From positions 302,551 through 366,550 of the forward strand of contig BQJJ01000003.1 in NCBI GenBank assembly GCA_021604645.1: DNA of 64,000 nucleotides, written 5' to 3'. How positions within the stretch are numbered: position 1 is the stretch's first letter; every line of letters begins with the position of its first letter. Below, piece after piece: positions 127 through 39,765 of the stretch. This DNA is from Methyloligella sp. GTDB lineage: Bacteria; Pseudomonadota; Alphaproteobacteria; Rhizobiales; HXMU1428-3. A program made the position numbers and the translations under genes. The notes beneath the pieces were generated by a model that had not been told where the DNA came from, did not search any database, and saw nothing but the letters and a program-made list of their open reading frames with translations.

Positions 127-361
127 GTTTTCTCTCATGGGCTATTTTTTCGCATCTGGCGCGAAAAGCCCACTTAAGCGCGATGCTAGGCACCAGATAG
201 GCTCCCTATTATATAAAGGCACCGGGCACTTTTTGTGCTTCTGATACCCACTAAGCATCCGCACTGGTGTCATTTTATCTGTGCTTCAGGTTGCCCAAAA
301 GCAACCGCACTGGCGCCATGCCCCTCATTCACAAGCAGGGTGAGCTCCTTCTTCGTATGGA
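127..361 (+). repeat. Mosaic of intergenic repeat modules (C, A, A, D)
   Basis: The first 455 bases hold no convincing gene. They contain repeat modules that recur elsewhere in the window. Module C (TTTCTCTCATGGGCTAT type) lies at 127-150. Hairpin module A lies at 235-264, partly decayed, and at 281-310. The second copy is perfect: outer arms GTGC/GCAC, bulge TTCA, inner arms GGTTGC/GCAACC, loop CCAAAA. Module D (GAGCTCCTTCTTCGT) lies at 342-356. The same modules appear at 22.7-24.0 kb in the same orientation. Confidence 0.7.
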
Positions 362-6298: not shown

Positions 6299-6395
6299 CA
6301 CTTTTTAAATTCAAAGACATGCTCTATTTCTTTGTTTAAGCGCATCTCTTTTCACAAAACCGGTTACCACTTTTGTGCGACACGCTCTTAAAATT
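6299..6395 (+). repeat. Rhizobial-type intergenic palindrome (modules H + B), 'empty' form
   Basis: The 690-bp chvI-pckA intergenic region contains module H (TTCAAAGACATGCTCTA at 6310-6326), followed by module B. Module B is a hairpin with arms CACAAAA (6353-6359) and TTTTGTG (6371-6377) around the core CCGGTTACCAC. The core AAAACCGG...CCACTTTT is a common palindrome in Hyphomicrobiales intergenic DNA. This copy lacks the internal module A found in the copies at 12.6 and 25.6 kb. Promoters of chvI and pckA must lie in this region, but I could not assign them reliably. Confidence 0.65.
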
Positions 6396-17217: not shown

Positions 17218-18088
17218 CCTTTAGAACATCAACCAAAGTTGTGCCTAGTGAAGCTGGGCTATCAGCAACTGCGATACCGGCTGATTTCATAGCTTCGATT
17301 TTGTCGCCTGCGCCACCTTTACCGCCAGATACAATCGCACCAGCGTGCCCCATTGTGCGGCCTGGAGGTGCTGTTACACCGGCAATAAAGCCAACTACTG
17401 GCTTCTTAACAGAATTTTGCTTGAGGAATTCAGCTGCATCTTCTTCTGCTGAACCACCAATTTCACCAATCATGATGATGCTTTCAGTTTCTTCATCCGC
17501 CAAGAACATTTCTAGAATGTCGATGAACTCAGTTCCCTTCACTGGGTCACCGCCAATACCAACACATGTTGTTTGGCCAAGACCTGCAGCTGATGTTTGA
17601 CCAACAGCTTCATATGTCAATGTCCCTGAGCGAGAAAGAATGCCCACTTTACCGCGCTTATGAATGTGACCTGGCATAATACCGATTTTACATTCATCTG
17701 GTGTGATTACACCTGGGCAGTTAGGGCCGATAAGACGTGTTTTAGAGCCTTCAAGTGCCCGTTTCACTTTTACCATATCCATCACTGGAATGCCTTCAGT
17801 GATACAGATAGCAAGTGGAATTTCAGCATCAATCGCTTCTAGGATAGCGTCACCAGCAAATGGTGGCGGTACATAGATAGCTGTCGCATTGGCGCCAGTT
17901 TTATCCATTGCTTCATGAACTGAATTGAAAATTGGCAAATCAAGATGTTCGCCGCCACCTTTACCAGGTGTTACACCGCCAACCATTTGCGTGCCATATG
18001 CAATCGCTTGTTCTGAGTGGAATGTGCCTTGGCTACCTGTGAAACCTTGGCAGATTACTTTTGTATCTTTATTTACGAGAATTGACAT
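17213..18088 (-). CDS. sucD: Succinyl-CoA synthetase alpha subunit
   Basis: Alpha subunit (291 residues) of the TCA enzyme interconverting succinyl-CoA and succinate with ATP or GTP formation. The N-terminal CoA-binding fold contains [12 protein letters not shown], the ligase core contains [11 protein letters not shown], and the phosphohistidine is His248 in [18 protein letters not shown]. It starts directly after the sucC stop (TAA then ATG, no gap), so the two subunits are translationally linked. The stop lies inside a Fur-box-like palindrome and is followed in frame by a second stop. Confidence 0.97.
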
Positions 18089-22688: not shown

Positions 22689-22972
22689 TTTCTCTCACGG
22701 CTATACTTTTTTAGTGGCACTTCAGGTTGCCCACCAGCAACCGCGCTGCTTTAAAAGCAAGCCCTACGAGGGGCGTCGCTTTTTTGCGATCAGCTTATCC
22801 GTACTCGCTGTGTTCCTTTCGGGCTGATCTTGTGCGCCGGACTTCGCTGACGCTTCGCCATGTCCCTCAGCCCGAAGTGGACTGAGCTCCTTCTTCGTTC
22901 AGTTGCCCACCTGCAACCGTCGCTGCAACGGTGCCAGTTTAAACGTCAGACCTCCGAGAGGCGGTGCTTAGG
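22689..22972 (+). repeat. Mosaic repeat cluster, GNAT-arsC interval
   Basis: Modules in order: C (TCTCTCACGGCTATACT, about 22691-22716), A (22716-22746; arms 22725-22730 and 22737-22742), G (22761-22779), F (GATCAGC 22788-22794 pairing with GCTGATC 22823-22829), E (GCGCCGGAC...CCATGT, about 22834-22864), D (GAGCTCCTTCTTCGTT, about 22885-22900), a truncated A (22901-22918) and a second G (22951-22972). The last one runs into the stop codon of the neighbouring arsC-like gene. The order matches the full copy at 23.66-23.88 kb. Confidence 0.7.
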
Positions 22973-23429
22973 CTGGATCGTTAAACTCTTTTGATGTGGT
23001 TAGAAACTCATCTACTTTGTTGCGTATCATTGTAAACACGTCTTCAAAGTCATCGTAGACTTTTGGGTCATCCAATGGGGTTGCTGCTGGATCTGGAAAC
23101 GGCCAGTGATACACAACAGGGGCGCCTGGCCATACGGGGCAGGTTTCGTTTGCTGCATTATCACACACTGTTATAACCAAGTGCATTTGGGGTGCACCTT
23201 CAGCCTCAAACTCATCCCAGCTTTTTGATCGTGCATCTGTTACAGAAATTCCATGCTTTTCAAGTGTTTCCAATGCAACAGGGTTCACCAAACCTGTTGG
23301 TTTTGAACCAGCGCTATAAGCTTTCCATTTATCACCAGCAATATGATTGATATAGGCTTCGCTTAAAATAGAGCGCGCGCTATTGCCGGTACACAAGATT
23401 AAAACATTTCTTTGTTTTGGAGTTTCCAT
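22968..23429 (-). CDS. arsC: Arsenate reductase / low-molecular-weight tyrosine phosphatase family (ArsC-like)
   Basis: 153-residue protein of the thioredoxin-coupled ArsC / LMW-PTPase family. The phosphate loop CTGNSARS starts at Cys13. A second cysteine region, VCDNAANETCPVWPG, carries the redox cysteines expected of arsenate reductases, and HWPFPDPA supplies the acid loop. Arsenate reduction to arsenite is the likely function. There is no arsR, acr3 or arsB beside it, which is unusual. It is flanked on both sides by mosaic repeats, and its stop codon lies within repeat-like sequence, so this short segment may have been rearranged. Confidence 0.85.
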   Translation of the reverse strand: METPKQRNVLILCTGNSARSILSEAYINHIAGDKWKAYSAGSKPTGLVNPVALETLEKHGISVTDARSKSWDEFEAEGAPQMHLVITVCDNAANETCPVWPGAPVVYHWPFPDPAATPLDDPKVYDDFEDVFTMIRNKVDEFLTTSKEFNDPA

Positions 23430-23533
23430 AGGCTTGGCCCTTTAAAAAATGAGATAGTGAGCGTTTATCAAACTTTGATTTGAGGAAATCAGTCTTGGCT
23501 ATATGTCATTTTCACGACAGTGATATGACAAGT

Positions 23534-23974
23534 TTTCTCTCACGGCTATTCCAAGCGCTTGGGCCTCCGAGAGGCGGTGCTAAGCACCGGACGCCTCTGG
23601 CGTCATGTCCTAATGCTCTAAGTAAAGCATTACTCCTTCTTCGTTTATTTAACTTTTTAGATTTTTCTCACAGCTATACTTTTTTAATGGCGCTTCAGGT
23701 TGCCCACAAGCAACCGCGCTTCCGTAGCTGCAGGCCCTCCGAGGGGTGGCATTTTTTGAGATCAGCTTATCTGTGCTCGCTAAAGCTCCGCTCAGGCTGA
23801 TCTTATGCACCGGACGCCTATGGCGTCATGTTTTAATGCTCTAATTAGAGCATTACTCCTTCTTCGTTTATTTAACTTTTTTGGTTTCTCTCACAGCTAT
23901 AGTTTTTTAATGGCACTTCGGATGCCCACAAAGCATCCGCTTTTCTTGGCTTCAGATGCCCACACAGCATCCGC
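23534..23974 (+). repeat. Mosaic repeat cluster with a full-length ~220-bp unit
   Basis: The 555-bp arsC-pentapeptide interval is mostly repeats. Unit 1 (23534-23658) has modules C, G, E and D, and lacks A and F. Unit 2 (23662-23881) is complete: C, A (23690-23719, perfect with GCGC/GCGC outer arms), G (23733-23750), F (arms 23760-23766 and 23796-23802), E and D. Unit 3 (about 23885-23974) is C followed by two A modules with GATGC/GCATC arms. The E+D parts of units 1 and 2 (23584-23658 and 23807-23881) are near-identical 75-bp direct repeats. Confidence 0.8.
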
Positions 23975-25490: not shown

Positions 25491-25504
25491 TCTCTGCTCG
25501 GCCA

Positions 25505-25634
25505 GAGCATGTCACTTATTATTAAATTAAAGAACATGCTCAATCTTTTAGTTGAAGCGTGTCATTTTTTGCTTCAGATGCCCACAAAGCATCCGCAAAA
25601 CCTAAAACCGGTATACACTTTTAGGTGACACGCT
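25505..25634 (+). repeat. Composite palindrome H + B with an embedded A hairpin
   Basis: Module H is itself a palindrome here: GAGCATGT (25505-25512) and ACATGCTC (25534-25541). Next come outer arms AGCGTGTCA (25556-25564) and TGACACGCT (25626-25634), a perfect 9 bp. These enclose an A hairpin (25571-25596, GATGC/GCATC arms) and the B hairpin CCTAAAA/TTTTAGG (25601-25607, 25619-25625) around a CCGG core. Compared with 6.3 kb, this is the same element with module A added. Confidence 0.8.
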
Positions 25635-25724
25635 CTAGTTCATTCGATTTTTTCGAATCACTTCATAATAGCAGATCACAGAGTCGTGAAAGTTAATTTG
25701 CATTAACATTCTTAAGAAAAAATA

Positions 25725-39720: not shown

Positions 39721-39765
39721 CACTTTGTTTTGAATTCAAAAGACATGCTCTACTTTTTTGTTTTG
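39721..39765 (+). repeat. Isolated module H of the intergenic palindrome family
   Basis: TCACTTTG...GAATTCAAAAGACATGCTCTACTTTTTTGTTTTG-type sequence, closely matching 6299-6338 and, more loosely, 25511-25555. The B half is absent here, so this looks like a partial copy between glcF and the CheZ-like gene. Confidence 0.55.

What the first reader, a model, noticed from the sequence alone, without database searches (positions are those of the whole stretch)
22689..23974. About 220-bp mosaic unit (order C-A-G-F-E-D) repeated around arsC
A full unit lies at 23662-23881; partial units lie at 22689-22972, 23534-23658, 23885-23974 and 127-361. The order of parts is conserved while individual parts are missing. 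The E+D parts at 23584 and 23807 are near-identical over 75 bp. Each part is itself largely palindromic (for example F: GATCAGC...GCTGATC). This resembles a non-coding mosaic element with its own internal logic, possibly transcribed or mobilised in trans.
Basis: partly seen in the sequence, partly recalled or inferred. Interest (0 to 1): 0.6.

Follow-up and report, generated by a model that had tools for sequence, protein, structure and literature searches.

The report
Nested hairpin repeats oriented by replication
The patchwork repeat near arsC is one of about 200 copies in this bacterial genome of a four-hairpin, RNA-like element whose hairpin loops have been filled by further small hairpin elements, and almost every copy points the same way relative to DNA replication, which suggests a way of spreading at the replication fork that no known enzyme in these genomes explains.

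Summary
Parts C, G, E and D form one ~120-bp element ("S"): conserved single-stranded joints separate four hairpins, P1-P4. Part A sits in the P1 loop and part F in the P2 loop. A also occurs alone, in loops of other A copies, and in loops of another palindrome family. Sampling 35% of the genome gives 79 S and 159 A (about 220 and 450 per genome). S has overwhelming covariation: 30 of 32 pairs change on both sides. Excess G.U over A.C pairs shows that the folding strand is the minus strand of the window. Copies are locked to replication-scale strand asymmetry (S 78/79, A 152/159), independently of gene direction; contig-level locking recurs in a second species. Sites are occupied in one species and empty in a relative. 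The proposed RAYT helper is not supported: seven sister genomes, several rich in these repeats, lack Y1 transposases, and the two RAYT genes here carry different flanking repeats. Best reading: non-autonomous mobile hairpin mosaics inserted at single-stranded sites of the lagging-strand template by an unidentified activity. This is a new variant of the BIME/REP kind.

The parts
133..357 (-). S element (diverged copy), two A hairpins in its P3 loop
   Evidence: R1 match 278-356; TCTCATGGGCTAT at 133 and CTCCTTCTTCG near 345 read from sequence
231..268 (+). A hairpin (GATAC/GCATC type), in the P3 loop of the S at 133-357
277..314 (+). A hairpin (GTTGC/GCAAC type), in the same P3 loop
12568..12650 (+). 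two tandem A hairpins
22691..22898 (-). S element, complete, with A in the P1 loop and F in the P2 loop
   Evidence: R1 72.1 bits; inserts
22706..22751 (+). A hairpin in the P1 loop
22781..22833 (+). F hairpin in the P2 loop
22898..22972 (.). A-like hairpin followed by an S fragment (CCTCCGAGAGGCGGTGC joint)
23536..23644 (-). S element, complete, no inserts (P1 is the bare palindrome CCAAGCGCTTGG)
   Evidence: R1 102.4 bits, E 2.1e-23; the empty state of the P1 loop
23664..23867 (-).
   Evidence: R1 43.7 bits, E 2e-8; inserts
23679..23724 (+). A hairpin in P1
23752..23807 (+). F hairpin in P2
23885..23974 (-). truncated S (RNA 3' end only) running into two A hairpins
25504..25636 (.). H palindrome (AGAGCATGTC..GACACGCTCT with an AAAACCGG..CACTTTT hairpin) with an A hairpin (25565-25602) in its loop
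40759..40916 (+). two A hairpins, the first directly after a terminator T-run

Best explanation
S, A and F are non-autonomous mobile hairpin elements forming an interspersed mosaic. SHOWN: (1) S is a four-hairpin element that folds, as RNA or ssDNA, on the strand opposite the window + strand. (2) A and F hairpins occupy the loops of S hairpins; A also occupies loops of other A hairpins and of the H palindrome. (3) Copies lie on one strand relative to chromosome-scale strand asymmetry, with rpoB on the A strand in the two best-resolved cases, and regardless of gene direction. (4) Sites occupied in one species are empty in a relative. (5) The four hairpins of S vary independently of each other. 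INFERRED: insertion occurs at the replication fork, into single-stranded places of the lagging-strand template (hairpin loops, pyrimidine tracts), because fork direction is the natural chromosome-scale property that could set orientation independently of genes. The moving form would be the A-tailed minus-strand (RNA-like) hairpin. The enzyme is unknown; it is not a RAYT/Y1, an IS91-type Y2 or an RVT_1 reverse transcriptase encoded in the well-covered genomes. My split: mobile mosaic with replication-set orientation 0.85; insertion into lagging-template ssDNA 0.5; RNA rather than ssDNA intermediate 0.3.
For: Covariation: 93.8% of cells paired vs 72.3% shuffled, 30/32 pairs with double changes, score 0.469 vs 0.153. 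Folding strand: a conserved G.U pair in 64 of 69 copies, G.U 120 vs A.C 56 elsewhere; in A, A.C 66 vs G.T 23 on the + strand; the minus strand folds better in 305 of 360 A copies vs 48 for the plus strand. Loop insertions: 25 nested A-in-A arrangements; inserts in 22 P2, 13 P1, 3 P3 and 3 P4 loops of 79 S. Orientation: S 78/79, A 152/159, 112 of 119 1-kb clusters wholly locked, while coding is 51% on that strand and T-runs are only 74:26; repeated in G002, e.g. 17 of 18 on a >1.1-Mb contig and all 45 listed S contig-consistent. Leading-strand markers: rpoB agrees in G000 and G002; the 16S contig agrees. Polymorphism: S at L237:5299-5510 vs a bare site in G000, and other sites. Hairpins P1-P4 uncorrelated across copies.
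Against: No mobilising enzyme identified. No clean target duplication seen; intergenic divergence blurs most junctions. S copies are at most 91% alike, median 64%, so there is no burst of fresh copies and activity may be old. rpoB in G007 is discordant with the one A copy on its contig, and G004 is unresolved. In G018 the S-like copies form inverted pairs and are not strand-consistent. Occupied/empty sites could partly reflect deletions. The chromosome is in 27 contigs, so origin and terminus were not placed.
Confidence: 0.55

Rival explanations
1. RAYT/Y1 single-strand transposition in trans: a REP-associated tyrosine transposase cuts and pastes the hairpins in lagging-strand ssDNA.
For: Two RAYT-like genes in this genome; IS608/ISDra2 are known to target the lagging-strand template (PMC6006769), which would give orientation bias.
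Against: No Y1_Tnp in any of the seven congeners, including 99%-complete G002 with 83 exact A cores and at least 59 S. Own RAYTs sit among unrelated AATTACGGTGACAGT repeats with no strong A/S copy near. GT[AG]G foot in only 60/327 A copies. The better-folding strand is the opposite of the lagging template.
Confidence: 0.07
2. Maintained by selection, not by insertion bias: S/A are functional polar elements (chromosome-polarity signals like KOPS, or RNA hairpins in transcripts), and wrongly oriented copies are lost.
For: Stems stay 94% paired although copies differ by about 36%. Orientation is as strict as for KOPS-type signals (own knowledge). Preference for gene 3' ends and for gaps where the RNA-like strand is sense: 31/235 vs 14/221 gaps, p=0.018.
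Against: Present/absent between species of 75-91% local identity. Loop-in-loop nesting looks like serial insertion. Transcript function does not predict orientation by replication. S was not detected in about 90% of the sampled order.
Confidence: 0.22
3. Retroposition of a small hairpin RNA by a reverse transcriptase, SINE-like.
For: The RNA-like strand ends A-rich next to a T-tract; S remnants keep the RNA 3' end more often than the 5' end (about 13 vs 2).
Against: No RVT_1 in G000, G001, G002, G003, G005 or G007. The truncation count is biased because the 3' end is more conserved, and A-A recombination can produce the same remnants.
Confidence: 0.1
4. Decayed protein-coding DNA, or chance low-complexity.
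For: None beyond a 106-aa unconserved ORF across the unit.
Against: Covariation, genome-wide copies, mostly intergenic placement.
Confidence: 0.01

Closest known systems
BIMEs of enterobacteria and RIME (Rhizobium-specific intergenic mosaic elements, Osteras et al. 1995)
   Same: Intergenic mosaics of palindromic modules in fixed order with optional parts; RIME is also from Hyphomicrobiales.
   Different: Four-hairpin covarying core, loop-in-loop nesting and near-absolute replication orientation.
GTAG REPs / REPINs with RAYT (PMC3733652, PMC3116915, PMC6006769)
   Same: High-copy 20-40-nt extragenic hairpins (A).
   Different: No GT[AG]G foot in most copies, no cognate RAYT, no inverted REPIN pairs noted in this genus.
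CGTC REPs of Alphaproteobacteria (PMC3733652)
   Same: Abundant in Alphaproteobacteria and apparently lacking a dedicated transposase.
   Different: A has a two-tier stem with a TTCA bulge and no CGTC end.
Palindromic and hairpin repeats of organelle DNA (Volvox PMC2670323, sponges PMC2800124)
   Same: Hairpin elements inserted inside other hairpin elements (Volvox); mechanism unknown.
   Different: Bacterial chromosome; RNA-like multi-hairpin core; orientation follows replication.
IS200/IS605 ssDNA transposition (IS608, ISDra2)
   Same: Works-like comparison: ssDNA, hairpins, lagging-strand template.
   Different: No Y1 transposase in most carriers; no element-encoded protein.

Membership tests
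GTAG REP / REPIN | short (20-40 nt) extragenic palindrome in high copy | tested here: met
   A: 159 copies in 1.26 Mb
GTAG REP / REPIN | GT[AG]G tetranucleotide at the foot of the stem | tested here: not met
   60 of 327 copies
GTAG REP / REPIN | cognate RAYT in the genome, flanked by the same repeats | tested here: not met
   within the genus, RAYTs only in G000, flanked by AATTACGGTGACAGT repeats
CGTC REP | CGTC-tagged 8-9-bp stem with 4-5-nt loop | tested here: not met
   A consensus TTTAGTGGCGCTTCAGGTTGCCCACTAGCAACCGC
BIME/RIME-type mosaic element | intergenic, ordered palindromic modules, some missing | tested here: met
BIME/RIME-type mosaic element | sequence homology to RIME1/RIME2 | not tested
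   RIME sequences not held; no S match in the plasmid collection
MITE | terminal inverted repeats and target-site duplication | tested here: inconclusive
   no obvious TIR in S; junctions show a T/C-rich left flank and no clear duplication
IS200/IS605-type ssDNA element | Y1 HUH transposase in the carrier genome | tested here: not met
   absent from seven congeners
RT-dependent retroelement | reverse transcriptase in the carrier genome | tested here: not met
   no RVT_1 in six of eight genomes, including G000 and G002
known Rfam RNA family | match above gathering score | tested here: not met
KOPS-like polarity signal | strand-locked to replication | tested here: met
KOPS-like polarity signal | bound by FtsK or similar and affecting segregation | not testable with these tools
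   GGGNAGGG itself is not skewed here, 30 vs 27

The most novel reading that the evidence does not exclude
A transposase-free, RNA-borne spreading mechanism at the replication fork: structured hairpin RNAs with A-rich 3' ends act as, or are captured like, Okazaki-fragment primers at pyrimidine tracts and hairpin loops of the lagging-strand template, and are copied into the chromosome by ordinary DNA polymerases. This would explain orientation, T-tract junctions, RNA-strand covariation and the lack of a reverse transcriptase or transposase. Nothing here shows it directly.
Probability: 0.1. Interest if true: 0.9.

Novelty: new variant of a known kind. Interest (0 to 1): 0.62.

Why it matters
How tiny palindromic repeats spread without their own enzyme is an old open question in bacteria and in organelles. 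This family offers an unusually clean handle: near-absolute orientation with replication, hairpins inside hairpin loops, a covarying RNA-like core detected in 31 of 297 sampled genomes of the order, and carrier genomes without the usual suspects (Y1, Y2, RVT_1). It also warns that a RAYT in the genome is not evidence that it moves the resident repeats.

Tried and rejected
RAYT as helper: rejected. RVT_1 reverse transcriptase: absent from most carriers. IS91-type Y2: only a 31-residue match on a small contig of G000. Carriage by viruses: no exact A or S pattern in viral contigs. Plasmids: no match to S. Known RNA family: none. KOPS octamer as a polarity control: not skewed in this genome. Orientation as a by-product of gene direction or T-run skew: rejected. 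The 5'-truncation excess as proof of reverse transcription: not accepted, because detection is biased and A-A recombination makes similar remnants. Literature searches found no description of S or A; the library is partial and the original RIME paper is not held.

Full report
Observation. The unit at 23655-23885 has 56 matches at E<=0.01 in its own 3.57-Mb genome (G000), with only 40 of 246 candidates scored. The named genomes found with the A core are Hyphomicrobiales MAGs (OFTM213, HXMU1428-3, OFTM288) and one labelled Rhodomicrobium sp., about 72-94% identical to G000 in long shared stretches.

Anatomy. The copy at 23536-23644 is the bare element. Part A is a ~40-nt two-tier hairpin (consensus) and part F a ~50-nt hairpin. 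In the sample, 22 of 79 S copies carry a long insert in the P2 loop (mostly F), 13 in P1 (mostly A), 3 in P3 and 3 in P4. One of the P4 inserts is an A in reverse.

Nesting. A copies also sit in loops of other A copies: 25 such structures (from the sample and relatives), where the inserted hairpin with its roughly six-pyrimidine leader starts right after CCAC or TTGC of the outer loop and ends just before the outer GCAAC/GCATC. A also sits in the loop of a third palindrome family, H, in the window at 25504-25636, and at one site in a relative S appears to lie within an H-like palindrome. So the mosaic is largely hairpins placed in hairpin loops.

Structure. A covariance model of S (R1) finds 79 copies in the sample, about 220 per genome by extrapolation. 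On their alignment 93.8% of pair cells are paired (shuffled mean 72.3%), 30 of 32 pairs change on both sides, and the covariation score is 0.469 against 0.153 shuffled and 0.03-0.08 when partners are slid. This alignment was fitted to the structure, so it leans towards it, but stem pairs with four or more standard pair types each are hard to explain otherwise. The strand that folds is the minus strand: one pair is G.U in 64 of 69 copies; elsewhere G.U outnumbers A.C 120 to 56. In A, A.C on the + strand (G.U on the minus strand) outnumbers G.T 66 to 23, and the minus strand folds better in 305 of 360 copies against 48.

Independent hairpins. Distances between copies computed on P1, P2, P3 and P4 are uncorrelated (Mantel r from -0.01 to 0.11, none significant at 0.05), while the joints correlate weakly with P1 and P4. 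P1 and P4 differ at 0.61 and 0.55 of positions between copies, the joints at 0.21. Some S copies at syntenic sites of two species carry quite different hairpins. Exchange between copies, or saturation, is the likely reason; I could not separate the two.

Orientation. The A strand has negative AT skew in 152 of 159 copies, and S agrees in 78 of 79. The one reversed S, in L062, contains an A that is also reversed, suggesting a local inversion. Counted as 1-kb clusters, 112 of 119 are wholly locked. Coding sequence is 51% on that strand, so gene direction does not explain it. Intergenic T6 runs are 74:26, too weak to explain it (p=1e-8). In G002, exact A cores are 17 to 1 on a >1.1-Mb contig and uniform on the other contigs, and all 45 listed S copies agree within contigs. 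GC skew agrees with AT skew where it is strong. rpoB lies on the A strand in G000 (C3) and G002 (C1); in G007 it disagrees with the single A copy on its contig, and G004 is unresolved. The 16S fragment on C18 agrees. I infer replication direction; origin and terminus were not located.

Mobility. Against OFTM213 (G003), several sites are occupied in one genome and short or bare in the other, for example S at L237:5299-5510 versus a gap of -1 in G000. S follows T/C-rich sequence already present in the empty site. No clear target duplication was seen. Copies are diverged (best 91%, median 64%), so activity is not obviously recent.

Distribution. The exact A core occurs in 7 of 8 genomes of the genus and in none of 53 others of the order. 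S occurs in all 8 and, more divergently, in other families of the order: 31 of 297 sampled genomes, 14 of 122 genera, some in tandem arrays. In G032 the copies are strand-consistent within contigs; in G018 they form inverted pairs. None was found in viral contigs or plasmids, and no Rfam family matches.

Helper enzymes. G000 has two proteins just above the NCBIfam REP-associated tyrosine transposase cut-off, but their genes are flanked by AATTACGGTGACAGTTTACTTAATT repeats, and no congener has a Y1 domain. RVT_1 is absent from six of the eight genomes, including G000 and G002. Y2 transposase is absent apart from a fragment.

Mechanism. The simplest account is insertion of hairpin elements at single-stranded places of the lagging-strand template (loops, pyrimidine tracts), which would set orientation. 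The active molecule would be the minus-strand hairpin, RNA-like by its wobble pairs. An excess of S remnants keeping the RNA 3' end (about 13 to 2) hints at copying from that end, but detection is biased and A-A recombination gives similar remnants. The main rival is selection for orientation or RNA structure; gene-context preferences (convergent gaps, sense with lagging-strand genes, p=0.018) fit some functional filtering on top.

Known relatives. It works like an interspersed mosaic element (BIME/RIME) and, in nesting, like the palindromic repeats of Volvox organelle DNA, where palindromes are found inserted within palindromes (PMC2670323). It fails the defining features of RAYT-linked REPs tested here. 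Kinship with RIME could not be tested.

Noticed in passing
window 25504-25636; also 6302-6337 and 39728-39763: A further palindrome family (AGAGCATGTC..GACATGCTCT with a TTAAAACCGGAATCCACTTTTAA hairpin) that hosts A insertions; recalled as widespread in Hyphomicrobiales but not checked.
   Followed up: partly
G000:C1:11100-16000 (L031, L032, L033): Two RAYT-like transposase genes about 3.5 kb apart with their own AATTACGGTGACAGTTTACTTAATT flanking repeats, among small uncharacterised ORFs; within its genus found only in this genome.
   Followed up: partly
G018 (e.g. C59:7031-7251, C12:13771-13984): In another family, S-like elements occur as inverted head-to-head pairs rather than strand-locked single copies.
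   Followed up: no
G126:C12:47304-47827: Tandem array of at least five S-like elements with a period near 104 bp.
   Followed up: no
G000 sampled stretches, e.g. C1, C5, C6, C9, C10: GC skew is near zero while AT skew stays clear, so the two skews are uncoupled over much of the chromosome.
   Followed up: no
L099:73-300 vs C4:60001 stretch, position 18025: An S copy appears to have been lost by recombination between two A hairpins, leaving a chimeric A.
   Followed up: partly
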